Shown here piece after piece: positions 22,752 to 42,496 of a stretch of 64,000 nucleotides of DNA. Positions within the stretch are counted from its first letter, which is position 1; the number at the start of each line of letters is the position of its first letter. Below the pieces are notes generated by a model. The model saw nothing but the letters and a program-made list of their open reading frames with translations, ran no database searches and was not told where the DNA came from. This DNA comes from Acarospora socialis (taxonomy: Eukaryota > Ascomycota > Lecanoromycetes > Acarosporales > Acarosporaceae): contig JAMYGW020000018.1 in assembly GCA_025617375.2 (NCBI GenBank), forward strand, positions 36,001 to 100,000, written 5' to 3'. The translations under genes and the position numbers were made by a program.

Positions 22752-23075
22752 TGTTACAGTCAAGTCAGAATAAGCTAAAAGCAAACTGATGTGTATATGT
22801 GAAGAGTGTATGTTCAGAGAATATCTAAATAATAATTATGTAACAGCACAACAGCTTGACAGTGAGCAGATGAGCTGAGAACTTGATTTCTCAATGTTGA
22901 GATGATGAGCAGACTCACTATATAGTAAAATTGTTTTTCTTATGAAAATAATCATGTTCAACTTAAATAACTATCTAAGAGTTAAAGATCAGAATCATTT
23001 CAGATCAACTGTTATATCAATAAGCACAAACTCTTAATTCTACATATCTGAGAAAGTTCAGATTAGAATGTTACA
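22752..23075 (+). repeat. Chromovirus A 5' LTR
   Basis: 324 bp, TGTTACAG...GTTACA. Same length as the 3' copy. Confidence 0.85.
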
Positions 23076-26000
23076 CTTTAAACATTCTTACAATATAACA
23101 AGTATGATGTCTGACACACAGAAGAACATCTCAATCTTGTTTTTGAGATAAGCTCAAGTAAACTCATCTTTATCATCTACTTTAGATAGAATGATGACAC
23201 AATTAGTGATAATGTCAGTTCAGATCATATAACTATCTCTGAATACATCTAAGATACAGATATCAGATATTTTTGATGAAGAATAAGAAAAGTTGTGAGT
23301 CTTTGTGACTAAATTCAATCTGTATATTGAATTTAATCAATTAAAGTTTCAAATTGATCAAGAGAAGACACTATTTGCAATAATCTATCTCATGAATGCA
23401 GTCTTCAACTGAGTTGACTTCAAGCTGCATGAGTTTCTAGAAAAGAAGTACAAAGAATGCAACACAGATGTGAAGTCTATGTTTAATGACTATAAATGAT
23501 TTAAAAAAGAACTCAGAAAAGTCTTCAGAGTGATTAATGAAGAGAGAGCAGCAAAGAAACAAGTTTATATTTTACAACAGAGTGAATCAGCAGCAGTATA
23601 TGTCACAGAGTTTCAGTGATTAGTGATACTTATCAGATAAAATGATGAAGCACTTATCTATCAGTACTATTGTGAGTTGAGAAAGTTCATCAAAGACAAA
23701 ATAGTTTAAATAAAACAATCAGACAATCTTCAGAGAATGATTAATCTGAGTATCAATATTAACAGTCATCAATGAAAATGACAGATGAAACAAAAAAAAT
23801 ATTGAATGTTATCTATGATAGAAGATCAAGAAGAAAGCTTTCAATCATGAACAAAATGATATGTTTCATCAATAAAACATAGAGAAACAAATTCTATATA
23901 TCTTAATATAATTAAGAAGCATCATCAGAAGTCATAAAAAACTAAATAAGTGAAGTCTGAATATCAGATAGAGTGATTCACTAAGTCTTAGATGACATTG
24001 TGAAACAAAATATAAATATGTTACAACTGCAGAAAACTCAAATATCTTGTTCAAGAATGCAACAGATCTCAGATGAAAAGAAAAAATATTGCAGTGATAG
24101 TCAAGAAAAATACATGCATAGTGCACAACACTCTCAGCTAAACAGTCTGCTACAATGACATGTGCAGAGTACATATAAACATAAAAAACAAAGTCAGATA
24201 ATATCTTCAGAAACTATACAAAGACATAAGAGACAGATACAACACAATGAATCAATTAATCTACAAAAAAGAACTAACTATTTTTACAAAAGAATATATC
24301 AAGAAGAACATTCTTGATGTTAAGATTGAAGAGATCAATACTTGAGAAACTCAGATAGAAGAAAACTACAGTGATAACATCTGACAAGCACTGAATTTGA
24401 ATGTGAATCAAAAGAAGATCAATAAATAAAAAGTCAATATAAGACTAAAGAAAGCATATCAGCACTTAGAGAATCAACACAAGACATTGAAAGAAGACAA
24501 GCTTCAGTTTGAGAAACAAGAACTTAAACAAGAAATACAAACTTAAAAATGAAAAGCAAAATGCAAAAGTGCAGAAGAAAAAAAGACATATAATCAGCTA
24601 AATGAGCTGATGATAGCTGTTAAAGACAAATGTTTCAGCAGTGATGATGCAGTATTGCTGAAATTTCTTGTGTGAAAAACAAAGAGTCACAAAATTGAGA
24701 TACACTTACTCAAAGAATATATTACACAGAATAAAGACAGATGAATCTTCAGTGAAGAATATATATTATCTGAATTTCTGCAAAGAATAAAAGTCTTTGA
24801 GAGTCAATTGCAGATGAAATACAATCAGTATGAACTCTGACTACATTTGAAAAGACACATTGAGCAGTACAGTCTAAAGTATGCAAATTTTATGATTGAA
24901 AGAAAATCAAGATGATTTCAGAAACTTTGAAGACAAACTGAACAATTAAATGAGTCAAAAAATAAAAAGCTCTCTTAACAAGACTAGAGAACAAGAAGCT
25001 AGCAGCATCTCAAAGACATGACAATGATCATCAAATATGAATCAAAATCACAATCAATAAACATCAAATCAACACATTAATGAATTTTGAAGTGAACAGT
25101 AACATTATGAACTGCAAAATAGTCAATCTGTTGAAATTAGAGACACAGTGAGCATGCTGTTCATTTAACATACAAATAATAAATGAAATCATTGAAAGAA
25201 TCAACAAGAAAGTCTGTGTGAAAGTCTCAATTCTTGAAAACTCACAAGAGATAATGTTTGATGTTATGAAATCAATCAAATATGATACAATGCTAGAGAT
25301 GTCTTGATTGCACAAAAAGAATTCAAGAATCAATTGAATTACAAAAGAGATATACACAATTAAAAACACATATGAGATTCTCAAACAATCAAAGATGAGC
25401 TTATCAAAACATAAGTCATAAAATCATAAAATATTGCTATTAAACAGAAAGCAATCTAAGTAAATGTCATTATACTTAATGAGCAAGAATCAACTCAAGA
25501 AAGTTAAAACTTATCTTGACAAGAATCTCAAGAAAGAATTCATAAAATCATTAAAATCATCAGCAGAATATTCAATTCTGTTTGTATCAAAGAAGAATGA
25601 AAAAAAACAACTATGTATTAACTACAGACAACTCAACAAGATAACTCACTGAGACAGTTATCTCTTATTGTTGATAAAAGAGTTGCAAGATTAATTAAAC
25701 AAGATTAAGTGATTCACAAGTTTAGATCTTAAGAATGTCTACTATTAAGTCAAAATGAAGAAAGATGAAGAATGAAAAACAGCATTTCACACAAGATATA
25801 AACATTATAAGTATACTGTTATGTCATTTGAGCTAAAAAATGCTTCAGTCATTTTTCAGAGATTAATTAACAACATATTAAGAGAATATCTCAATGATTT
25901 TGTAATCACATATCTTAACAATATTCTGATATATTCAGAAGATCTTGAAGAGCACTGTGAGCATGTGTGCAAGATACTGACAAGACTCAATGAGTGAGTT

Positions 26001-28021
26001 CTGTACATGAAAAAGTCAAAAAGCAGATTTAAGATCAAGAAAGTTGAGTTTTTAAACTATATAATTTAATCTGAACAGATCAAGAAGAATTTAAAGAAAA
26101 CAGAAGCAGTCAGAAATTAATTAATATTAAAATGAATCAAGAAAGTACAGATCTTTCTAAAATTAACAAACTACTATTAAAAGTTTGTATCAAACTATGC
26201 AAGAATTGCAGAATCACTAATGTGTTTGACACACAAAAACAAAAAATAACATTGAAATAAGAAGCAGAAGAATGTGTTTCACATATTAAAGAAAAGTTTT
26301 AGCAAAACAACACATCTGAGAATACTCAATTCAGCATATAAGAAAATACTGAAAATTAATGCTTCAGATTTTGCAGTAAAAGTATGTCTATATTAAATTG
26401 AGAAAGAACAACAGAAACTCATAGTGTATCAATTTAGAAAGTTATCAGAACTCAAGAAAAGATATGAGATTCATGATAAGAAACTTCTTGTGATAGTGAA
26501 GACATTGCAAGATTAAAGATCTTATCTTACAGAAATAAACAAGTCAATTCAGATCTATATGAATCATAAGAATCTGAGAAACTTTGCAATGACAAAACAA
26601 CTCAATTGACAACAAATTCATTGAATGAAGCAGTTAACAGACTATGAATTTTAAATTCATTACAGAAAAAATAATGAGAATAATAAAGCAGATATCTTGA
26701 GCAGACAATCTGATTATGAAGATGTACAGACAGTATACATTGAAATTTTAAGCAAAGATGACAGAGAAATTCTCACAAAAAACTTAACAGCAATACATAA
26801 AATAGAGTAAGCTTTCTTGACAGACAAAGAACTCATTAAAATATGTCACTACAGCAAAATTGATGAGTATTTAAAAGTCAAATACACAGAGAATCTTGTG
26901 CAGAGAAGATGCAATGTTAATAATTTTAGAAATTGAGTCATCAAGATGATCACTGTGTGTGATTCATGCTGAAGAAATAAGATCAATTAAGATAAATGAT
27001 ATAACAAAGTAACACAACTAAACACATCAGATACATCATGAAAGTCAGTTATCATGAACTTCATTATGAAGTTATCATTATCAAAGAACTCAGCATGAAG
27101 AGTGAAATTTAACAGTATATTAATCATAGTAAACAAATTAATCAAGTATACAATGTTCATTTCATTCAGAGAAACTGCAACAGCATCAGTATTGATGTAC
27201 ATTATACTGCAGAAATTAATTAACAATTATGAACTATCAAAAGAATTTATCATCAATAGAGACAAACTGTTTACAAGCAAATTTTGAGAAACACTTACAG
27301 CAGAACTCAGAATAAAACATAAAATGTTAATGATATATCATTTACAGACAGATGAGTAAAGCAAATGAATGAATCAGACAGTAAAGACATACTTGAGACA
27401 CTACATCAATAAAAGTCAAGATGACTGAGTATGACTGTTATCAACAGCACAATTTGCATACAACAACACTAAGAATGAGATCACAGAAGAAATGTCTTTC
27501 TATATGAATTATAACTACAATTTGAAGATATAACAAGATCTCAAAAAACATAAATTACAAAGTCAGAAAGCAATTTTGAACATCACTCAGATGAAGAAAC
27601 TGCATCAAGATCTAATGAGATGAATTGAACAGCAGATGAAACAAATGATAAAGACAAAATAATTTGAAGAAGAAAAAAAGATATACTTAAAAATGAACAA
27701 TATACAAATCAAAGAAAAAAGCAAGAAGCTGAAAAACAGAAGTCATTGAATCATTCAAGATTATATGAAACATCAAGAAATTAAGTTATGAGCTAGACTT
27801 ACTTAAGAAAATGAAAATACACTCAGTATTTCATGCATTCATGTTACAGCACTGCAATCAATTCATATCACTTCAAATCATTGAAACATCTGTCAAATTT
27901 AACAAAGAATATAAAGTCAAGAACATTTTAAAAAAGAAAATGATTAGTGAGAAAGTTCACTATCTCATAAAATGAAAAGATTACAATATCTCAGAAAATA
28001 TCTGAAAATCTAAAGAGAATC

Positions 28022-28504
28022 TCAAGAACTGTGCAAGAACACTTCAATGTTTTGAGAAAAAAAGTCAATATTAGCTTAGAAGAATGACAATATTGAGTTA
28101 ACAAGTTGTAATATTGTTTGAGAATCTTCATTCTCAGTCTCATCATTATCACTATTAAGTTCAGCAGCAAGACAGTCAGTTTTCTGTGTGATATGATGAT
28201 TTATTTGATTCAAAGTCTTTTGAAAACACATCATCTTGACAGTAAAAACATCAAGAGCTGCATTTGCATCACTTATTTTCTTTTGAAGAAAAAGATGAGT
28301 TTTGTTAAGAGACTCTCACAAAACTGCAACATACAGATAACTGCAACAAGTATACTTATCACATTTTGATCTTTCATCAATCATGATAAAACAATTGAGA
28401 CTGCAAGCAGTACAGAATTCACAAGAGAATGTGATGAGACTATCACTGAGTTGAATTTTCTTTGTGATTCTTAGATGATTGAAATTTTTAAAAAGCATTG
28501 TCAC
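28022..28504 (-). pseudogene. Antisense Zn2Cys6-like ORF in chromovirus A
   Basis: 161 codons on the strand opposite gag-pol, between the chromodomain and the 3' LTR, overlapping the chromodomain's end. The first part is open from 28504. The cysteine region reads SCEFCTACSLNC, then CDKYTCCSYLY, so two of the six cluster cysteines have become Tyr here. It is collinear with the better preserved copies at 29378-29857 and 36590-37108. Confidence 0.55.
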
Positions 28505-28576
28505 TGATGATGAACAATGTGAATACTCTCACTTATATAAACTCTAAAGAACTAGCACCTGAGAAGAGAAGAATGA

Positions 28577-28900
28577 TGTTATAATCAAGTCAAAATGAAC
28601 TAAAAGCAAACTGATATGTACATGTGAAGAATATATGTTCAGAGAATATTTAAACAGCAGTTACATAATAACACAACAGCTTGATAATGAGCAGACAAGC
28701 TAAGAACTCAATTTCTCAATGTTGAGATGATAAGCAGACTCACTATATAGTAGAACCATTTCTCTTATGAAAACAATCATGTTCAACTTAAATAACTATC
28801 TAAAAGTTAAAGATCAAAATCATTTCAGATCAACTGTTATATCAATAAGCACAAACTCTTAGTTCTACATACTCAAGAAAGCTCAGATTAAAATATTACA
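28577..28900 (+). repeat. Chromovirus A 3' LTR
   Basis: 324 bp, TGTTATAATC...ATTACA, preceded by a polypurine tract. Confidence 0.85.
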
Positions 28901-28941
28901 CTTTAATAGTGATATTTCACATCATGCTGATATGAGTATGT

Positions 28942-29302
28942 TGTAATGTTCTAACCTGAGATTTCTCAGATATGTAGAACTAAGAGTTTGTGCTTATTGA
29001 TATAACAGCTGGTCTGAAATGATTCTGATCTTTAACTCTTAGATGATTACTTAAGTTGAACATGATTGATTTCATAGAAAAATTGATTCTACTATATAGA
29101 ATGAGCTTGATGTTTCTGCATTGAGCACTCTTGATGTCTTGATGTCTTGATGTTGAGAAATTGAGTTCTCAGCTTGTCTGCTCATCATTGAGCTGTTATG
29201 CTGTCATGTAACTGTCACTCAGCAGTTCTCTCTGTACACACTTTAAGCAAATCTCTGATCACAGACTCATGAGTTTTTTTCTTTTCAGATATGATCATAA
29301 CA
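28942..29302 (-). repeat. Chromovirus C/D 3' LTR
   Basis: 361 bp, reverse orientation; the plus strand reads TGTAATGTTCTAAC...GATCATAACA. Confidence 0.85.
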
Positions 29303-29377
29303 TCATTTTTCTTTCTTAGATGCTAGTTCTCTAGAGTTTATTTAAGCAAAAGTATATAACAACTTTCATTATCAGCA

Positions 29378-29857
29378 ATGATGCTTTCTAAAAATTTCAA
29401 TTGTCTAAGAATTACAAAGAAAATTCAACTCAGTGGTAGTCTCATCATGTTTTCTTGTGAATTCTGTACTGCTTGCAGTCTCAATTGCTTTGTCATGATT
29501 GATGAAAGATCAAAATGTAATAAGTGTACTTGTCACAGTTGTTCATGTGTTGCAGTTTTGTGAAAGTCTCTCAACAGAACTTGTCTTTTTCTCTGAAAGA
29601 AAATAAATGATGTGAATATGACTCTTGATGCTTTCACTGTCAAGATGATACATCTTCAAAAGACTTTAAATCAAACAGATCATTGTGCTGCACAGAAGAT
29701 CAACTGTTTTGCTGTTGAACTTAATAGTGATAATGATGAGATTGAGAATGAAAATTCTCAAACAATGTCATAACTTATTGACTTGATGTTGTCATTCTTC
29801 TGAACTAATATCAACTTCTTTTCTCAAAATGTTGAAGTGTTCTTGCACAGTTCTTGA
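29378..29857 (+). pseudogene. Antisense Zn2Cys6-like ORF in chromovirus C/D
   Basis: 160 codons opposite to the element's gag-pol and in frame from the ATG at 29378 to the TGA at 29855; open to 29563, then a few internal stops. After a basic start (KNFNCLRITKKIQ), the cysteines are spaced C-x2-C-x6-C-x9-C-x2-C-x6-C (CEFC...C...CNKC...C). This meets the GAL4-type Zn(II)2Cys6 consensus. The second half is helical, then acidic (NSDNDEIENEN). Extra Cys residues next to the cluster are probably former Arg codons (CGN to TGY). Its role is unknown; it overlaps the sense chromodomain end. Confidence 0.6.
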
Positions 29858-31319
29858 GATTCTCTTTGAGTTCTCAGATATTTTCTGAGATGTTATAATC
29901 TTTTCATTTGACAAAATAGTGAACTTTCTCATCAATTATTTTCTTTTCTAAAATGTTCTTAACTTCATATTCTTCTTTGAGTTTGACAGATGTTTTGATG
30001 ATTTGAAGTGATATGAACTGATTGCAATGCTGTAACATGAATGCATGAAATACTGAGTGTATTCTCATTTTCTTGAGTAAGTTTAGCTCATAGCTTAATT
30101 TCTTAATGTTCTATATGATCTTGAATGATTTAATGTTCTTGTTTTTCAGCTTCTTGCTTCTTTCTTTAGTTTATATGTTGTTCATTCTTAGATATATTCT
30201 TTTTTCTTCTTCAAATAATCTTGTTTCTGTTGTTTGTTCTGTCTGCTGTTCAATTTGTGTTGTCAGATCTTGATGTAGTTTCTTCATTTAAGCAATATTC
30301 AAAATCACTTTTTGATTCTGTGATTCATGTTCTTTGAGATCTCATCATATCTTTGAGTTGTAGTCATAGTTCACATAAAAAGATGTTTCTCTTGTGATTT
30401 TGTTTCTTGTGTTGTTGTATGCAAACTGTGCTGTTGATAACAGTCATACTCAGTTGTCTTGACTTTTGTTGATATAGTGTCTCAAGTACATCTTTACTGT
30501 TTAATTCATTCACTTACTTTATCTGTTCATCTGTAAATAATATATCATCAACATTTTGTGTTTTATTCTGAGTTCTGCTGTGAGTGTTTCTTAAAACTTG
30601 CTTGTAAACAGCTTGTCTCTGTCAATGATAAACTGTTTTGATAGATTATGATTGCTAATCAATTCTTGCAGTATGATGTATGTCAATACTGATGCTGTCA
30701 CAGTTTCTCTGAATGAAATGAATATTGTGTACTTGATCAATCTGTTCACTATGATTAATATGTTATTGAATTTCACTCTTCATGCTGAGTTCTTTGACAG
30801 TGATAGCTTTGTAATGAAGTTCATGATAATTGATTTTCATGATGTGCTTAATGTGTTTAGTTGTGTTACTTCATTATATTGTCTATCTTGACTGATCTTA
30901 TTTCTTCAGCATGAGTTGCACACAGTGATTATTTTGATGATTCAATTTCTAAAATCACTAATGTTGCATCTTCTTCACACTAGATTCTCAGTGCACTTGA
31001 TTTTTAAATGTTCATCAACTCTGCTGTAGTGACACATTTTAATGAGTTCTTTATTCATCAAGAAAGCTTGCTTCATCTTATACATTGCTGCTAAGTTCTT
31101 CATGAGTACTTCTTTATTGTCTTTGCTCAGAATTCTAATGTGTATTGTCTGTATATCTTTGTGATTGAGTTGTTTACTCAAGACATCTGCTTTGTCATTC
31201 TTATTATTCTTTTTGTAATGAATTTGAAATTCATAATCTGTCAACTGCTCTGCTCAACAAACTTGTCATTAATTGAGTTGCTTTGTTGTTGCAAAGTTTC
31301 TCAGATTCTTGTAATCTGT

Positions 31320-31700
31320 TGTTATGATCAAGTCAGAAAGAACTTAGTGTTATGATCAAGTCAGAAAGAACTTAGAGTGAACTGATGTGTATGTGAAAAA
31401 GATGTACATTCAAGAAGATGTTAAACAACAGTCATGTGACACTTCAACATGCTCAATGTGCAGACAGTGAGCTGAGTGAGCTGAGACTTGATGTGCTCAA
31501 TGTGCTTAATAGTGAGACTGACAAGATCAGCAAGTGAACTCACTATATAGTAGAGTCATTTTTCTTATGAAAACAATCATGTTCAACTTAAATAACAATC
31601 TAAAAGTTAAAGATCAGAACTGTTTCAGACCAGTTGTTATATCAATAAGCACAAACTTTTAGCTCTACATACTCAGAAAATCTCAGATTAGAATGTTACA
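31320..31700 (+). repeat. Chromovirus B 5' LTR
   Basis: 381 bp. The first 29 bp (TGTTATGATCAAGTCAGAAA...) are tandemly duplicated at the LTR start. Confidence 0.87.
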
Positions 31701-34374
31701 CTTTGAACACTCTTACAATATAACAAGTACAATGTCTGACACACAGAAGAATGTCTCAACTTTGTTCTTGAGACAAGCTCAGACAAACTCATCTTTATTA
31801 TTTACTTCAAATAGAATGATGACACAATCAGTGATGATGTCAGCTCAAGCTATACAACTACTTCTGAGTGCATTAAAGATACAGATATCAAATATCTTTG
31901 GTGAAGAGAGAGAAAAGCTGCAAATCTTTGTGACTAAACTCAATCTGTACATTGAATTTAATCAACTGAAGTTTCAAACTGATCAAGAAAAGACACTGTT
32001 CACAATGATCTATCTTGTGAATGCAGTCTTCAATTGAGTTGATTTCAAACTGCATGAGTTCTTAGAAAAAAGATATGAAGAGTGCAACACAGACACAGAG
32101 TCTATGTTCAATGACTATATATGATTTAAGAAAGAATTAAGAAAAGTCTTCAGAGTAGTCAATGAAGAGAAAGCAGCTGAGAAATAAGTTTATATCTTGC
32201 AACAGAGTGAATCAGTGACAGTATATGTTACAAAGTTTCAGCAATTAACAGCACTTATCAAATAAAATAATGAAGCACTCACCTACCAGTACTATTGTGA
32301 GTTGAGAAAGTTCATCAAAGACAAAATAGCTCAAGCAGAACAATCAGACAATCTTTAGAAAATGATTGATCTGAGTATTAATATTGATAGTTGTCAGTGA
32401 GAACAACAGATGAAACAAAAAAAATATTGAATGTCATCTATAATAGAAGATCAAGAAGAAAGCTTCTGACTGTGAGTCAAGCAATATATTTCATCAATAA
32501 GATATAGAGAAACAGACTCTATGAATCTCAATATAATCAAGAAGTACTGTCAAAAGTCATGAAAGACTAGATGAACAGAGCATGAATGTCAGTCAGAGTG
32601 ATTCACTAAGTCTTAGATAACATCACAAAATGAAATATGAACATGTTACAACTGCAGAAAACCTGAACACCTTGTTCAAGAATGCAACAGATCTCAGATG
32701 AAAAGAAAGAATATTGCAGTGACAGTTAAGAAGAATACACACATAGTGCACAACATTTTCAGCTGAACAGCCTGTTACAATGACATGTGCAGAGTACACA
32801 TAAGCACAAAAGATGAAGCTGAATGATATTCTCAGAAACTGCAAAAGAACATGAAGAATGAATATGATGTGACAAGTTGATCAGTCTATGAAAAAGAATT
32901 AGCTATTCTTATCAAGAAAAGAGTTCTTGATGCTGAGAAAGAAAACAATGTTCTTAAAGATGACATTGAAGAGACTGATGATCATGAATCTCAGATTGAT
33001 GAATCTTGAATATTTTCTGACAGCAATACACTTGTGAGAGAAAGTTTGAATAATGTTGAGACAGAGTTCTCAAGAAAGTACCAAACAAAGATCAAAGAGA
33101 AGCTAAGTGCTCAGAGAAAAAAGACATCACACAAGAATGCAGAAACACAAAAAGTATGTAATCAGCTGAAAGAGCTGATGACAGCTGTTAAAGATGAATG
33201 TTTCAGCAGCAATGATGCAACATTGCTCAAATTTCTTGTTTAAAGAACAAAAAGTCACAAAATTGAAATATACTTACCTGAAGAATATACCATGCAGAAT
33301 GAAGACAGATGAATCTTCAGTGAAGAATATATATCACTCAAATTTCTGCAAAGAGTAAAAGTCTTTGAGAGTCAGTTGCAGATGAAGTACAATCAGTATG
33401 AATCTTAACTACATTCAGAAAGATGCATTGAGCAGTATAGTTTAGAGTATGTGAATTTTATGATCAGAAAAAAACTCAAATGATTTCAAGAACTTTGAAG
33501 ATGAGCTGAATGATCAAGTGAGTCAAAAAATGAAGAGCTTTCTCAACAAGACTAGAGAATAAAAAGCTAGTGATGTCTCAAAGACAAGACAATGATCATC
33601 AAATATGAATCAAAATTATGATCAATGAACATCAGATCAACACATTGATGAATTTTGAAGCAGACAGTAATATCATGAATCAAAAAACAATCAACATGTT
33701 GAAATTAGAGACACAGCAAGCACACTGTTCATTTAACATACAAATGATGAACAGAGTCATCAAAAGAATTGATGAGAAAACCTGTGTGAAAGTCTCAATT
33801 CTTGAAAACTCACAAGAGATAATGTTTGATGTTATGAAATTAATCAAATACAATGCAATACTAGAGATGTTCTGATTACACAAAAGAAATCTGTGAATTG
33901 ATTGAGTCACAAAAGAAATATGCACAGTCAAAGATGCATATGAGATTTCTGAACAATCAAAGATGAGTTTATCAGAGCATAAGTCATGAAATCATGAAAT
34001 ACTGCTATTGAATGAAAAGCAATCTAAGTGAATGTCATTATACTCAATGAGTGAGAATCAACTCAAGAAAGTTAGAACTTACCTTGACAAGAATCTCAAG
34101 AGAGAATTCATAAAATCATCAAAATCATCAACAGAATATCTGATTCTGTTTGTATCAAAGAAGAATGACAAGAAATGACTATGTGTTGACTACAGACAAC
34201 TCAATGAGATAACTCATCAAGATAGTTATTCTTTACTGCTGATAGAAGAGTTGCAAGACTGACTAGACAAGACTAAGTGATTCATGAGCTTAAACCTTAA
34301 AAACACCTATTATCAAGTCAGAATGAAAGAAGATAAAGAATGAAAGACAGCATTCTGAACAAGATACAGACACT

Positions 34375-34689
34375 ATGAGTACATCATCATGTCATTTTGA
34401 ATTAAAAAACACATCAATCACCTTTCAGAGATTGATCAACAACATGTTGAGAGAATATCTTGATGATTTTGTGATCACATATCTTGATGATATTCTGATA
34501 TATTCAGAAAATCTTGAGAAATACAGAGAGCATGTGTGCAGAGTATTGACAAAGCTCAATGAGAGAGTCTTGTATGTGAAAAAGTCAAAAAGCAGGTTCA
34601 AAATCAAGAAAGTTGAGTTTCTGAACTATGTGATTCAATCTGAACAAATCAAGAAGAATTCAAAAAAGACAAAAGCAGTCAGAAACTGA
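34375..34689 (+). pseudogene. Chromovirus B reverse transcriptase fragment
   Basis: A 104-aa open stretch of the RT palm. It contains TFQRLINN and YLDDILIYSE, with the catalytic aspartates present. Glycine and proline codons expected in the family (GGN, CCN) have become Glu or Ser, matching loss of GpG and CpC. Confidence 0.85.
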
Positions 34690-36589
34690 TCAACATCAAA
34701 ATGAATCAAGAAAGTACAGGTCTTTCTAGAGTTAATGAACTATTATTGAAAGTTTGTATCAAATTATGCAAGAATTGTGAAATCATTGATGCATTTGATG
34801 CACAAAAGTGAAGAATAGCATTGAAATCAAGAACAGAAGAATGCATTTCACACATTAAAGAAAAGTCTTAGCAGAACAGCACATCTGAGAATATTCAATT
34901 CAGCATGCAAGAAGACACTGAAAACTGATGCTTCAGATTTCACAATAAAAGCATGTTTATATTAGATTGAGAATGAGCAGTGAAGACTCATAGCATATTG
35001 ATTCAGAAAACTATTGAGACTCAAGAAAAGATATAAGATTCACAACAAGAAACTTCTTGTGATAGTAGAAGTGCTACAAGATTGAAGATCTTATCTTGCA
35101 GAAACAAATAAGTCAATTCAGATCTACACAGATCACAAGAATCTGAGAAACTTTGCAACAACAAAGCAACTCAATCAATGACAGATTTGTTGAACAGAGC
35201 AGTTAGCAGACTATGAATTTCAGATTCATTACAAGAAGAGTAATGAGAATGATGAAGTGAATGTCTTGAGCAGATAATTTGATCATGAAGAAGTACAGAT
35301 GATACATGTTGAAATTTTAAGCAAAGATGACAAAGAAATTCTCATGAAGAGCTTAGCAGCAATGTACAAGATAAAGCAAGCTTTCTTGACAGACAAGAAA
35401 CTCATCAAGATGTGTCATTACAGCAGAGTTGAAGAACATCTGAAAGTTAAACACACTGAGAATCTAGTGTGAAGAAGACACAACATTAGCAATTTTAGAA
35501 ATTGAATCATCAAAATGATCACTGTGTGTGATTCATGTTGAAGAAACAAAGTCAACTGAAACAAGCAATATGACAAAGTAATGCAACTGAACACATCAGA
35601 TGCATCATGAAAGTCAGTTATTATGAACTTCATCATGAAGCTATCACTGTCAAAGAACTCAACATGAAAGATGAGATTCAACAGTATATTGACAATAGTG
35701 AATAGATTGATCAAGTACACAATGTTCATTTCATTTAAGAAAACCACAACAGCACCAGTATTGATGTACATCATACTGCAAGAATTGATTAGCAATCATA
35801 AACTATTAAAAGAGTTTATCACTAACAGAGACAAGCTGTTTACAAGCAAGTTTTGAAAAATGCTCACAGCAGAACTCAAGATAAAACACAAGATGTTGAT
35901 GATATATCATTCACAGATGAATAAACAGAGCAAATGAATGAATCAGATGATAGAAACATACTTGAGACACTATGTCAACAAAAGTCAAGATGACTGAGTA
36001 TGACTGTTGTCAATGACACAGTTTGCATACAACAATGCAAGAAACAAGATCACAGAAGAAACACCTTTCTATGTGAACTATGACTATAACTCAAAGATAT
36101 GATGAGATCTCAAAGAACACAAATCATGAAGTCAAAAAGTGATTTTGAATATTGCTCAGATGAAGAAACTGCATCAAGATCTGATGAAACAGATTGAACA
36201 GCAGACAGGATGAATGACAGATGCAAGATCATTTGAGAAAGAAAAAAAAATATACTTAAAAACAAACAATATGAGAACTAGAGAAAGAAGCAAGAAGCTG
36301 AAGAACAAGAGCATTGAATCATTCAAGATTATATGAAACATCAAGAGATTAAGCTATGAACTAGACTTACTCAAGAAAATGAGAATACATTTGATATTTC
36401 ATGCATTCATGCTACAGCATTGCAATCAGTTCATACCACTTCAAATCAACAAGACACCTGTCAAACTCAATGAAGAATATGAAGTTGAGAACATTCTAGA
36501 AAAGAGAATGATTAGTGAGAAAGCTCACTATCTCATAAAATGAAAAGATTATGATATCTTGAAGAATATCTGAGAACTCAGAGAAAATC

Positions 36590-37108
36590 TCAAGAACTGT
36601 GTGAGAACACTTCAATGTTTTGAGAAAAGAAGTCAATATTAGCCCAGAAGAATGATGACATGAAGTCAACAAGTTGTGACATTGTTTGAGAATCTTCATT
36701 CTCAGTTTCATCATTATCACTATCAAGTTCAGCAGCAAGACAGTCAGTCTTCTGTGAAGCACAATGATCTGTTTGGTTCAGTGTTTTCTGAAGACATACA
36801 ACTTTTGAGAAAAGAGTGGCAAGCTCAGTGTGCTTAGTTGTCAAGACATTGTTTGTCTTACTCACTTCTTTCATCATCTTTGATATTTTCTTTCAGAGCA
36901 AAATACAAGTTCTATTGAGAGACTTTCACAACACACTGACACACAGATGACCATGACAAGTACACTTATCACATTTCAGTCAAGATTTCATTACAAAACA
37001 ATCAAGACCACAAGAGGCACAGTAATCACAAGGAAATGGGGCTAGAACACCATCAAGTTGAATTTTCTTTGCAATTCTTAGGTGATTGGAATTTTTAGAA
37101 AGCATCAT
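36590..37108 (-). pseudogene. Antisense Zn2Cys6-like ORF in chromovirus B
   Basis: 173 codons on the strand opposite gag-pol, in a single frame from the ATG at 37108 to the stop at 36590, with three internal TGA codons; the last 96 aa are open. The cysteine pattern is C-x2-C-x6-C-x8-C-x2-C-x6-C (CDYC...C...CDKC...C) after a basic start (KNSNHLRIAKKIQ-like). Next come a helical stretch (LATLFSKVVCLQKTLNQ) and an acidic segment (AELDSDNDETENED). It is the best preserved of three collinear copies and lies in the least mutated part of the nest. Confidence 0.65.
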
Positions 37109-37183
37109 TGCTGATGACAAATGATGTGAATACTCTCACTTATATAGACCCTAGAGAACTAGCACCTGAGAAGAGAAGAATGA

Positions 37184-37565
37184 TGTTACAGTCAAGTCAG
37201 AAAGAACTTAGTGTTACAGTCAAGTCAGAAAGAACTTAAAGCAGACTGGTGCATATGCAGAAAAGATGTACATTTGAGAAGATGTTAGACAACAGTCATG
37301 TGACACCTCAACATGCTCAATGTGCAGACAGTGAGCTGGGCAAGCTGAAACTCAATGTGCTTGATGCACTTGATGGTGAGACCAATGAGGCTGACAAGCA
37401 AGCTCACTATATAGTAAAGTTGTTTTTCTTATGAAAACAATCATGTTCAACTTAAGTAACAATCTAAGAGTTAAAGACCAGAACCATTTCAGACCAGTCA
37501 TTATATCAATAAGCACAAACTTTTAGCTCTACATACTCAGAAAATCTCAGATTAGAACATTACAT
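37184..37565 (+). repeat. Chromovirus B 3' LTR
   Basis: 382 bp with the same tandem duplication of its first 29 bp (TGTTACAGTCAAGTCAGAAA...). A polypurine tract lies immediately upstream. Confidence 0.87.
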
Positions 37566-40500
37566 CTGTGTAGATCTGAATTGACTTATTTGTCTCTGTG
37601 AGATAAGATCTTCAGTCTTGTAATGCTTTCACTATTGCAAGAAGTTTCTTGTTGTGAATCTCATATCTTTTCTTGAGTTCTGATAGTTTTCTAGATCAAT
37701 ACACTATGAATTTCTGTTGTTCATTCTCAATCTGATATAGACATGCTTTTACTGTGAAATCTGAAGCATCAGTTTTCAGTGTCTTTTTGTATACTGAATT
37801 GAGTATTTTCAGATGTGCTGTTTCACTAAAACTTCTCTGTAATGTGTGAAATGCATTTTTCTGTTTTTGATCTCAGTGTTATTTTTTGCTTTTGTGTGTC
37901 AAATGTGTTAGTGATTCTGCAATTCTTGCATAGTTTGATACAAACTTTCAATAATAGTTCATCAATTCTAGAAAGACTTGTACTTTCTTGATCTGTTTTG
38001 ATGTTGATCAGTCTTTGACTGCTTTTATTTTTTTTGAATTCTTCTTAATCTGTTCAGATCAAATCACATAGTTTAGAAACTTAACTTTCTTGATTTTGAA
38101 TCTCTTTTTGACTTTTTCACATACAAGACTTTCTCATTGAGCTTCACTAATATCTTGCACACATGTCTGCAGTGCTTCTCAAGATTCTCTGAGTATATCA
38201 GAATATCATTAAGATATGTGATCACAAAATCATTGAGATATTCTCTCAATATATTGTTGATCAATCTCTGAAAGATGACTGATGCATTTTTCAATTTAAA
38301 TGACATGACAATGTATTCATAGTGTTCATATCTCATTCAGAATGCTGTCTTTCATTTTTTATCTTCTTTCATTCTTACTTGATAATAGATGTTCTTAAGA
38401 TCTAAGCTTATGAATCACTTAGTCTTGTCTAGTCAGTCTTGCAACTCTTTTATCAAAGATAGAGAATAACTGTCTTGATGAGTTATCTCATTGAGTTGTC
38501 TGTAGTTGACACATAGTCATTTTTTGTCATTCTTTTTTGATATAAACAGAATTGAGTATTCTGCTGGTGATTTTGATGATTTTATGAATTCTTTCTTTAG
38601 ATTCTCATCAAGATAAGTTCTAACTTTCTTGAGTTGATTTTCACTCATTGAGTATAGTGACATTCACTTAGATTGCTTTCTGTTCAATAGCAGTATTTTG
38701 TGATCTCATAACTTATGCTCTGATAAGTTCATTTCTGATTGTTCAGAGATCTTATATGTGTCTTTAATTGTACATATTTCTTTCATAACTCAGTTAATTT
38801 TCAGATCTCTCTCACACAATCAGAGCATTTTTAGCACTGCATTGTATTCAATTAATTTCATAACATCAAACATTATCTCTTGTGAATTTTCAAGAATTGA
38901 GACTTTTACACAGATTTTCTCATTAATTCTTTTGATAACTTCATTTGTCATTTGTATGTTGAATGAACAGTGCACTCACTGTGTCTCTAATTCTAACATA
39001 TTGACTGTTTTTTTATTCATAATATTACTGTCTGCTTCAAAATCTATTAATGTGTTGATATGATATTCACTAATTGTGATATTGATTCATATTCAATAAT
39101 CATTGTCTTGTCTTTGAGACATCACTAGCTTCTTACTCTTTAGTCTTGTTGAGAAAGTTCTTTATTTTTTGACTTGCTTAATCATTTAACTCATCTTCAA
39201 AGTTCTTGAAATCACTTTGATTCTCTTTTGATCATAAGATTTGCATACTCTAGACTATGTTGCTCAATGCATTTTTTTGAGTGTAGTTGAGATTCATACT
39301 GATCATACTTTATCTGCAACTGACTCTCAAAGACTCTTACTTTTTGCAGAAATTCAAATAATATATACTCTTCACTGAAGATTCATCTGTCTTTATTTTG
39401 CATGATGTTTTCTTCAGATAAGCATATCTCAATCTTGTGATCTTTTGTCTTTCAAACAAGAAATTTTGACAATGCTGCATCATCACTGTTGAAATATTCA
39501 TCTTTAACAGCTGTCATCAGCTCTTCTAGCTGATCATATGTTTTTTGTTCTTTTGCATTCTTGCATTGTGCTTTTCATTTTCAAGCTTGCATTTCTTGCT
39601 CAAGCTCTTGCTTCTCAAATTGAAGCTTTTCTTCTTTCAATGCTCAGTGTTGATTCTCAGAGTGCTGATATGCTGTCTTTAGTTTTATATTGACTTTTCA
39701 TTCATTGATTTCTTTCTGATTCACATTCAAATTCAGTGCTTGTCAGATGCTATCACTGTAGTCTTTTTCTATCTGAGTTTCTCAAGTATCAATCTCTTTA
39801 ATCTTGACATTAAGAACATCTTTCTTGATATATTCTCTTGCAAGAGTAGCTAATTCTTTCTTGTAGTTTAATCAATCTGTTGTGTCATGTCTGATTTTAG
39901 TATCTTTGTTGTATAACTTCTGAAGATATCATCTGACTTTATTTTTTGTGTTTATGTGTACTCTGCACATGTCATTGTAGCAGATTATTCAGCTGAGAGT
40001 GTCATGCACTATGTGTGTATTCTTCTTAACTGTCACTGCAACATTTTTTCTTTTTATTTGAGATCTGTTACACTCTCAGACAAGATGTTCAGATTTTTTA
40101 CAGTTGTAATATGTTCACATTTCATTTCACAATGTTATCTGAGACTTAGTGAACCACTCTGACTGACATTCATACTTCACTCATCTAGTCTTTTATGACT
40201 TCTGATGATGCTTCTTGATTGTATTGAGATTCATAGAGTTTGTTTCTCTATATCTTATTAATAAAATATATTGCTTAATTCACAATCAAAAGCTTTCTTC
40301 TTGATCTTTTATTATAGATGACATCTGATATTCTTTTCATTTCATTTGTTGTTTTCACTGACAACTATTGATATTGATACTTAAATTAATCATTCTCTAA
40401 ACATTGTCTGATTGTTCTGCTCAAACTATCTTGTCTTTGATGAACTTTCTCAACTCACAATAGTATTAATAGATAAGTGCTTCATCATTTCATCTGATAA

Positions 40501-41054
40501 GTGTTGCTAATCACTGAAACTCTGTGATGTATACTGTTGCTGATTCACTCTGTTGCAAGATGTAAACTTATTTCTCTGCTGCTCTTTCTTCATCAATTAT
40601 TCTGAAGACTTTTCTTAGTTCTTTTTTAAACTGTGCATAGTCATTGAACATAGACTTCACATTTGCATTGCATTCTTCATACTTCTTTTTCAGAAACTCA
40701 TGCAGCTTGAGATTAACTCAATTGAAGACTGTGTTCACAAGATAGATTGTTGCAAACAATGTTTTCTCTTAATTGATTTGAAACTTTGACTGATTGAATT
40801 CAATATATAGGTTGAGCTTTATCATAAAGACTCACAGTTTTTCTTGTTCTTCATCAAAGATATTTGATATCTGTATCTTAGATGCACTCAGAGATAGTTG
40901 TATTGCTTGAACTGACATCATCACTGATTGTGTCATCATTTTATCTGAAGTAAATAGTAGAGATAAGTTCATCTGAGCTTGTTTCAAAAATAAGATTGAG
41001 ATGTTCTTCTGTGTGTCAGACATTGTACTTGTTATATTGTAAGAGTGTTCAAAG

Positions 41055-41415
41055 TGTAATGTTCTAATCTGAGATTTCTTAAGTATGTAGAACTAAAAGT
41101 TTGTGCTTATTGATATAACAACTGATCTGAAACAGTTCTGGTCTTTAACTCTTAGATGATTACTTAAGTTAAACATGATTGATTTCATAAAAGAATTAAT
41201 TCTACTATATAAAGTGAGCTTGATGTCTCTGCATTGAGTATTCTTGATGTTTTGATGTTTTAATGTTGAGAAGTTGAGTTTTCAGCTTGTCTGCTCATCA
41301 TTGAGCTGTTATATTATTATATGACTGTCACTCAGCAGTTCTCTCTGTACACACTTTGAGCAAAATCTCTGATTACAGACTTGTGAGTTTTTTTCTCTTC
41401 AGATATGATTGTAAC
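41055..41415 (-). repeat. Chromovirus C/D 5' LTR
   Basis: 361 bp, reverse orientation; the same length as the other copy and highly similar on reading. Confidence 0.85.
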
Positions 41416-42496
41416 ATGTGTTAAGTTTTTCTTTTTGTGTCAATCTGTTCACAAAACAGTCTCAACAGTTTTTAATTGTAACTTTTTCTCTTGAAGCTTC
41501 TGCAGACTTCTCTTGATGTTTGAGATGTTTTGAGTATTGATTGTGTTGTGAATCACTGTGTAGTTCTCAAATAATGCTTGAAGAAATGTCTAAAATCATT
41601 GTTCAGACTTGAATAGATCAGTCATATCAAACTAAGTTGCAGCAATTTTTCTGCTCAGCTTACTGAGATGTATTTATGCTTCATTAATAAATACATTTGT
41701 CAACATTCTGTATTCAATAAACTTCATCAAATATTGTCTTTCAGTGATCTGCAGCTTCTTCTTGTATTTGAACTTCAAGATGTTTTAAACATTTTTTACA
41801 TTGATTTTGTCTGTAATGTACTTCTGATCATCTGCACTGATATAGATAATGAGTCAGTATAAAGTTTTTGTGTCAGACTTCTGACTTTTAAAATTAAGAT
41901 TGCTGAGTAAAAAGAAAAAGTCACTGATAAAAGTGTTGATTACTGAGATCTTAATAATGTATCAAAGATCTTCATCTATCAGTCATCTTCTTATAAAAGT
42001 GAATCATTGATTGCAGTTCTTGCAACTGAGAATTAAAATGAGTTGTCACTTCATGAAAGAGTTGTTGAAATTCATAATATAGCTTTTGACAACAGTCAGC
42101 ACATAATATAAAAAATGAATAAAATGAAGTATTAAGATGTACAGAAGAAGATAATGTAAATAAAAGAAAGAAGAAGTGTGTGTGCTTGTTTGCTCAATCA
42201 TTGAGTATCATATTAAGTTGTCAATAAGTCTCATTTTACTCAATCTTAAAGCTCTATATTGAGTGTCAAGAATGTTATTTTGCTCAATCTTTGAGTCTTA
42301 TATTGATGATCAAGAGTGCTTATTTTGATCTTGTATCAAGCTGTTAAGAGTGTCATTTTGCTCAATCTTAAAGCTTTATATCAATGATCAATAATGCTTG
42401 TTTTACTCAATCTTTGAGTTTCTGTATCAAGCTGTCAAGATATTAGAACAGTATGCACTTTCTCTGAAAAGCTTCTTGCTAATTTGAGTTCATAAT

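What the first reader, a model, noticed from the sequence alone, without database searches (positions are those of the whole stretch)
28022..37108. Conserved antisense Zn(II)2Cys6-like ORF in all three chromoviruses
Each chromovirus copy (A 28504-28022, C/D 29378-29857, B 37108-36590) carries, on the strand opposite gag-pol and between the chromodomain and the 3' LTR, a collinear frame of 160-173 codons. It starts M(M/T)ML(S/F)KN, has cysteines spaced C-x2-C-x6-C-x8/9-C-x2-C-x6-C in the two best copies, then a helical stretch and an acidic tail. That spacing fits the GAL4-type binuclear zinc cluster consensus. The B and C/D frames persist end to end with only TGA/TAA-type stops and no visible indel, although the copies were inserted at different times. 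An antisense DNA-binding-like protein in a Ty3 element could regulate the element or its host. I have a vague memory of cysteine-rich hypothetical proteins near fungal retrotransposons but know of no described function.
Basis: partly seen in the sequence, partly recalled or inferred. Interest (0 to 1): 0.82.

Follow-up and report, generated by a model that had tools for sequence, protein, structure and literature searches.

The report
Antisense zinc-cluster gene in fungal retrotransposons
Jumping elements in this fungus carry, back to front behind their usual genes, an extra gene for a small protein with a zinc-cluster pattern that evolution has kept intact in some lineages, which makes the role of such backwards genes testable.

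Summary
All three chromovirus copies carry a collinear antisense frame between chromodomain and 3' LTR. The frames have 2-4 internal stops, but the gene is real: 150 collinear copies were scored in the genome, three loci have uninterrupted 167-170 aa ORFs, and a protein database gave 430 relatives. Six cysteines with CX2CX6CXnCX2CX6C spacing occur in 136 of 149 relatives of 140 aa or more. PDB hits of two AlphaFold models were Zn2Cys6 domains in 9 of 9 and 9 of 12 rows, all weak. Transversions favour third codon positions of the antisense frame (1, 1, 17 in the clearest pair). A TATA-like box precedes the ATG in 71 of 72 copies. Most likely an accessory gene encoding a coiled-coil zinc-cluster regulator of the element. 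Against GAL4-type membership: Pfam's cut-off is missed, and basic residues between Cys2 and Cys3 are nearly absent, lying between Cys5 and Cys6 instead. An antisense gene at this place, brtn of Botrytis Boty, is already described; homology was untestable. New variant of a known kind.

The parts
36590..37108 (-). copy B antisense frame, 173 codons with terminal stop, three internal TGA
36941..37030 (-). copy B six-cysteine cluster, C-x2-C-x6-C-x8-C-x2-C-x6-C (residues 27-56)
   Evidence: spacing conserved in relatives
36719..36928 (-). copy B stretch corresponding to the long helix predicted in relatives (approximate limits)
37139..37146 (-). TATA-like box TATATAAG, starting 38 nt upstream of the antisense ATG and outside the LTR
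28022..28504 (-). copy A antisense frame, two internal stops, fifth and sixth cluster cysteines lost
29378..29857 (+). copy C/D antisense frame, four internal stops, six cysteines kept (middle gap nine residues)
36478..36630 (+). copy B chromodomain (PF00385, 24.6 bits, cut-off 25.1)
36640..36642 (+). copy B pol stop codon; pol and the antisense frame overlap tail to tail by 53 nt
34179..34629 (+). copy B reverse transcriptase (PF00078 in two frames, 24.6 and 45.0 bits, cut-off 29.6)
34915..35214 (+). copy B RNase H (PF17917)
31320..31700 (+). copy B 5' LTR; target site duplication TCTGT at 31315-31319
37184..37564 (+). copy B 3' LTR; target site duplication TCTGT at 37565-37569; purine-rich tract about 37168-37183
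22752..28900 (+). copy A element, LTRs about 22752-23075 and 28577-28900 (no matching target duplication seen)
28942..41417 (-). copy C/D element, 3' LTR about 28942-29303, 5' LTR about 41055-41417, with copy B inserted in it

Best explanation
A family of fungal chromoviruses (Ty3 elements whose pol ends in a chromodomain) carries a second gene on the opposite strand, between pol and the 3' LTR. A promoter with a TATA-like box just outside the 3' LTR drives it. It encodes a protein of about 165-175 aa: a short basic N-terminus, a Zn2Cys6-like binuclear cluster, a long coiled coil that should make it a dimer, and an acidic tail. Most likely it enters the nucleus, binds nucleic acid as a dimer through the zinc cluster, and adjusts transcription of its own element in trans, much as antisense factors of some retroviruses do. 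The window copies are decayed members. Shown: the frame, its spread, its selection, the cysteine pattern, the TATA-like box. Predicted: fold and coiled coil. Inferred: transcription, zinc binding, dimerisation, nuclear action, regulation.
For:: 150, 151 and 150 matches in three overlapping searches of the genome, each capped; 106 of 150 chromodomain hits have a listed antisense frame in the expected place; 12 more counted by eye; uninterrupted ORFs of 167, 170 and 168 aa in L079, L091, L092; over 72 copies, transversions with the rarer class in at least 4 copies fall 11, 8, 23 on antisense codon positions 1, 2, 3 (p=0.011); LTR control 32, 34, 24 (p=0.38); pol in its own frame 9, 2, 29; of 45 pairs of ten sequences, 34 depart from uniformity at p<0.05, 9 do not, 2 have no transversion; L082 against L086 gives 1, 1, 17; in 4 of 6 pairs tested the antisense frame has fewer replacing transversions than all 300 random placements (9 of 19, null mean 16.0, for L082-L086); no other frame does; all six cysteines invariant in 38 relatives (34-77% identity to the first); profile match to 8 host Zn_clus domains, 67% probability, E 5e-5; five controls with permuted non-cysteine columns 0.3-3.9%; 9 of 9 PDB hits are HAP1, LEU3, PUT3, Pho7 and 1cld (that all are Zn2Cys6 proteins, and 1cld LAC9, is recalled); 9 of 12 are HAP1, LEU3, Pho7 and GAL4; two are kinetochore complexes holding the Zn2Cys6 protein Cep3 (recalled) and one a mitoribosome. 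TATA-like box in 71 of 72 copies, shuffled mean 6.1, maximum 15.
Confidence: 0.55

Rival explanations
1. The gene is real and selected, but the zinc cluster and coiled coil serve protein contacts (with Gag, integrase or host chromatin proteins) rather than DNA recognition.
For: Basic residues between Cys2 and Cys3, present in the 8 host Zn_clus domains compared (net +2 to +5), are absent in 124 of 136 relatives. The protein is small and its tail acidic (net -4 to -8 in six members).
Against: 17 arginine-rich members have on average 2.41 basic residues between Cys5 and Cys6, so nucleic-acid contact by the other half of the cluster remains possible.
Confidence: 0.3
2. Only antisense transcription matters (double-stranded RNA that silences or tunes the element); the frame is incidental.
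For: Antisense transcripts may act through dsRNA in other elements, as discussed in PMC7264820 (passages). A TATA-like box is conserved.
Against: Transversions avoid replacing positions in this frame, and all six cysteines are invariant in 38 relatives.
Confidence: 0.06
3. A captured fragment of a host zinc-cluster gene, carried along without function.
For: Zn2Cys6 genes are common in this genome (68 hits), and the cluster resembles them by profile.
Against: Relatives at 28-40% identity share the architecture, so the gene is old, and it is under selection.
Confidence: 0.04
4. A chance open frame or a shadow of the sense pol gene.
For: The last 18 or so codons overlap pol, and the C-terminal extension of many relatives would lie antisense to the chromodomain.
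Against: The other 466 nt lie beyond the pol stop of copy B. In L082 against L086 none of the five other frames is depleted of replacing transversions, and they carry 4-20 stops in L082. One sense frame is mildly depleted in two other pairs (15 and 22 of 300).
Confidence: 0.02

Closest known systems
brtn, the antisense gene of Boty-like retrotransposons in Botrytis cinerea (Zhao et al. 2011, Virology 417:248; only its title in reference lists was seen, paper not held)
   Same: Extra gene on the opposite strand between pol and the 3' LTR of a fungal Ty3 element (passages of PMC7264820) whose gag-pol has a chromodomain (passage of PMC4227169); also mentioned in PMC8365987 (passages).
   Different: Whether BRTN has the six-cysteine cluster or is homologous could not be tested. 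One gene is called brtn-106 in PMC4227169; what the number means was not seen.
Zn2Cys6 (GAL4-type) fungal DNA-binding domain, Pfam PF00172
   Same: Spacing of the six cysteines, two short predicted helices at the CxxC motifs, a coiled coil behind; profile match to host members.
   Different: Below the curated cut-off; nearly no basic residues between Cys2 and Cys3, a basic patch between Cys5 and Cys6 instead.
Antisense additional ORFs of plant LTR retrotransposons (Grande gene23, RIRE2, Retand with the TRP28 domain, PvRetro13)
   Same: Position and orientation; proposed regulatory role, for Grande a nuclear protein (passages of PMC7264820, and PMC11963269).
   Different: The word zinc occurs in neither main text; no sequence comparison was made here.
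Antisense regulators of retroviruses such as HBZ of HTLV-1 (start of the abstract of PMC10186651 seen in the listing; that HBZ is a bZIP protein is recalled)
   Same: Works like: an antisense gene near the 3' end with its own promoter, whose product acts in the nucleus.
   Different: No relation by sequence is claimed or was tested; here the TATA-like box lies outside the LTR.

Membership tests
Zn2Cys6 binuclear cluster (PF00172) | six cysteines with CX2CX6CX(5-16)CX2CX6C spacing | tested here: met
   136 of 149 relatives of 140 aa or more; 0 of 745 shuffled sequences reach 6 of 6
Zn2Cys6 binuclear cluster (PF00172) | Pfam gathering score of 21 bits | tested here: not met
   best score shown 19.0 bits (P0006); best E among 34 and 38 members 0.0016 and 0.0013, scores of the other members not shown; no match for the three window frames
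Zn2Cys6 binuclear cluster (PF00172) | basic recognition stretch between Cys2 and Cys3 (its role is recalled) | tested here: not met
   no K/R in 124 of 136, one in 12; the 8 host domains compared have net +2 to +5
Zn2Cys6 binuclear cluster (PF00172) | fold of the cluster | tested here: inconclusive
Zn2Cys6 binuclear cluster (PF00172) | binding of two zinc ions and of DNA | not testable with these tools
   needs protein
antisense additional gene between pol and 3' LTR (brtn-like position) | ORF on the opposite strand between the pol end and the 3' LTR | tested here: met
   copy B: pol stop 36640, antisense frame 36590-37108, LTR from 37184
antisense additional gene between pol and 3' LTR (brtn-like position) | sequence homology to BRTN | not tested
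   BRTN sequence not available; paper not held
antisense additional gene between pol and 3' LTR (brtn-like position) | antisense transcription | not testable with these tools
   no RNA data
chromovirus (Ty3 with chromodomain) | gag, RT, RNase H, integrase parts and chromodomain in this order, LTRs with target duplication | tested here: met
   copy B: gag (21.5 bits, cut-off 24.1), RT, RNase H, H2C2, SH3_Tf2-1, Chromo (24.6 bits, cut-off 25.1), LTR pair, TCTGT duplication; the integrase core PF00665 and a protease were not listed at E 0.01 in the decayed pieces

The most novel reading that the evidence does not exclude
A subclass of zinc-cluster proteins with reversed polarity (the basic, nucleic-acid-contacting helix in the second half, CTRRGRPC, instead of the first) is carried antisense by a whole lineage of fungal chromoviruses. 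It acts as a dimeric trans-regulator of the element, and perhaps of the host promoters near which copies land: a fungal counterpart of retroviral antisense factors that arose independently.
Probability: 0.3. Interest if true: 0.82.

Novelty: new variant of a known kind. Interest (0 to 1): 0.62.

Why it matters
Antisense genes near the 3' end are known in several retrotransposons, but the review seen in passages says that their functions are not known (PMC7264820). Here such a gene has a recognisable cysteine pattern, a selection signature, a candidate promoter and hundreds of relatives, so its role can be tested directly with purified protein and strand-specific RNA data. If it binds DNA, fungal retrotransposons carry their own transcription-factor-like regulator. 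Annotators who meet these proteins as hypothetical proteins could file them with the element.

Tried and rejected
Alignment A1 mixed strands: loci from minus-strand hits are not turned round, so seven of its sixteen rows were read on the wrong strand. It was discarded, and orientations were set by hand. The 72 copies are part of what one search listed: copies A, B and C/D, 29 of the 30 loci L009-L038 (L009 is copy B itself and was dropped) and 40 more that I picked from the list. Viral contigs gave no relative (36 stretches matched a pattern, none confirmed). A PDB search by sequence profile listed 23 sequences, mostly coiled-coil or helical proteins and a weak protein kinase C match (1tbn, E 0.98), no Zn2Cys6 entry. 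NCBIfam (5 proteins) gave only matches far below its cut-offs. Canonical CpA RIP was my first assumption for the decay; speak against it. Chance frame, pol shadow and antisense RNA alone were set aside. A look for CGG half-sites in LTRs was dropped: only one GC-rich, little-decayed copy (L079) is in hand. Literature searches whose listings showed no description of a zinc-cluster antisense gene in a fungal retrotransposon: 20 of 64 papers listed; 20 of 317; 20 of 29; 20 of 40; 15 of 242; 15 of 19; 11 of 11; open-licence papers only, titles and abstract starts seen. The chromodomain count compares lists each cut at about 150 hits, so the 32 chromodomain hits left unmatched do not show absence; two of them (C13:12481 and C20:44650) lie in long open frames, and one, C18:63910, is copy A of the window, which has the frame.

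Full report
WHAT WAS CHECKED. B and C/D keep six cysteines in the pattern C-x2-C-x6-C-x8/9-C-x2-C-x6-C; A has lost the last two. Internal stops number 3, 4 and 2. The window is a stretch of contig C18 of an unnamed 31.1 Mb, 38-contig genome; 68 Zn2Cys6 hits in it suggest a fungus, most likely a filamentous ascomycete (inference).

ANATOMY. Copy B spans 31320-37564 with 381-nt LTRs and the 5-bp target duplication TCTGT. It lies inside copy C/D, which runs on the minus strand from about 41417 to 28942. In sense order copy B has gag and zinc-knuckle matches (both under the Pfam cut-offs), reverse transcriptase in two frames, RNase H, the integrase zinc domain, an SH3_Tf2-1 domain and a chromodomain. 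The pol stop is at 36640-36642. The antisense ATG at 37108 is 75 nt from the LTR, which starts at 37184; the frame ends at 36590, so the two genes converge and overlap by 53 nt. Many relatives carry a further 26 or so residues (SSWGF...) that would lie antisense to the chromodomain, so their conservation is best explained by the sense gene (inference).

HOW WIDESPREAD. A search with the copy B frame scored 150 of 365 candidates in the genome; all 150 rows have at least one stop. A search with a relative, P0030, found further families, five of the listed rows without stops in the matched part. Checked from ATG to stop, L079 (167 aa), L091 (170 aa) and L092 (168 aa) are uninterrupted, while L082, L085, L086 and L088 have one or two stops. 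L079 is GC 0.49 and little decayed; the 3' part of its pol has three in-frame stops before the pol stop. Of 150 chromodomain hits, 106 have a listed antisense frame in the expected place, and 12 more are matched by eye. Protein searches gave 13, 53 and 430 relatives (120 of the 430 were listed); 162 sequences were in hand. They are predicted proteins, so open by construction, and their genomic setting was not seen.

SELECTION. To avoid the C-to-T decay I counted transversions only. In 72 aligned copies, outside the pol overlap, transversions whose rarer class is in at least four copies fall 11, 8, 23 on antisense codon positions 1, 2, 3 (p=0.011): 3, 3, 11 in the C-terminal half (p=0.022) and 8, 5, 12 in the cysteine half (p=0.23). 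Controls: 3' LTR 32, 34, 24 (p=0.38); pol in its own frame 9, 2, 29 (p=4e-7). Those in two or three copies (4, 0, 3) show no third-position trend; singletons (3, 4, 10, p=0.078; 0, 0, 6 in the cysteine half, p=0.0025) lean the same way, so they are not a clean neutral control. Among ten sequences compared in pairs, 34 of 45 pairs depart from uniformity at p<0.05, 9 do not (five with L079, L082-B, L085-L092, B-C and B-A), and 2 have no transversion; the third position has the largest or joint largest count in all 43. The clearest is L082 against L086: 1, 1, 17. In six pairs tested by placing transversions at random, the antisense frame has fewer replacing ones than all 300 placements in four, fewer or equal in 8 of 300 in L085-L086, and 22 of 300 in B-C. 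One sense frame is mildly depleted in L082-L088 and L086-L088 (15 and 22 of 300). These pairs share branches and include the codons that overlap pol.

EXPRESSION. A TATA-like box lies between the LTR and the antisense ATG in 71 of 72 copies (shuffled mean 6.1, maximum 15), and TATATAAG or TATTTAAG recurs in the diverged loci L079, L082, L085, L086, L088, L091 and L092. The pattern also matches the sense strand in 51 of 72 and starts 38 nt from the ATG in copy B, so direction and start site are unproved.

MECHANISM. I take it as an accessory gene with its own promoter whose dimeric zinc-cluster product acts in the nucleus on the element's own expression. Shown: gene, selection, cysteine pattern, box. 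Predicted: fold, coiled coil. Inferred: everything else. The main rival is a protein-contact role, because the classical recognition stretch is missing.

WHAT IS KNOWN. [quoted passage not shown] PMC8365987, passages; PMC4227169, passages). The original brtn paper is not held. Retand antisense ORFs encode TRP28, said to be probably able to bind DNA (PMC11963269, passages). Two surveys of fungal LTR elements had no occurrence of the word antisense in the main text (PMC2864245; PMC3248453); a figure legend of the first names an additional ORF with unknown function. I saw no report of a zinc-cluster antisense gene in the listings, a search of open-licence papers only.

VERDICT. Observation confirmed, interpretation partly supported, new variant of a known kind.

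Noticed in passing
window 18001-48000: The AT-rich block does not carry the usual CpA signature of RIP. CpG is at 0.04 and CpC at 0.18 of expectation while CpA (1.52) and TpG (1.57) are in excess (flanks 0.94-0.96 for CpG and CpC). Over 72 copies, 157 adjacent polymorphic Y/R column pairs read TG 5529, CA 4281, TA 1127 and CG 4 times. This looks like C-to-T mutation at CpG and CpC; decay of methylated CpG is an alternative for the CpG part. In the passages of the RIPCAL paper that I saw (PMC2621366) no fungus is said to have this pair as its preferred target. It may explain why most stops are TGA.
   Followed up: partly
window 37147-37167 and L079, L082, L085, L086, L088, L091, L092 upstream of the antisense ATG: Between the purine tract and the TATA-like box a stretch like GGTGCTAGTCCTCT or GGCACTAGTCCTCT is conserved across diverged element families; its role is unknown.
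   Followed up: no
L079 (G000:C14:274805-278308): A little-decayed member (GC 0.49) with an uninterrupted antisense ORF and, beside it, the best-scoring chromodomain hit of the genome.
   Followed up: partly
window 28942-41417: Nested insertion: copy B sits inside C/D with target duplication TCTGT; the flanks of C/D read ACACA and ACATA, a possible decayed duplication; copy A shows no matching duplication.
   Followed up: partly
C-terminal extension of P0002, P0004, P0037 and others: The last 26 or so residues (SSWGF...) look more conserved than much of the protein; by position they would lie antisense to the chromodomain, a trap for anyone reading conservation on the antisense strand alone.
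   Followed up: partly
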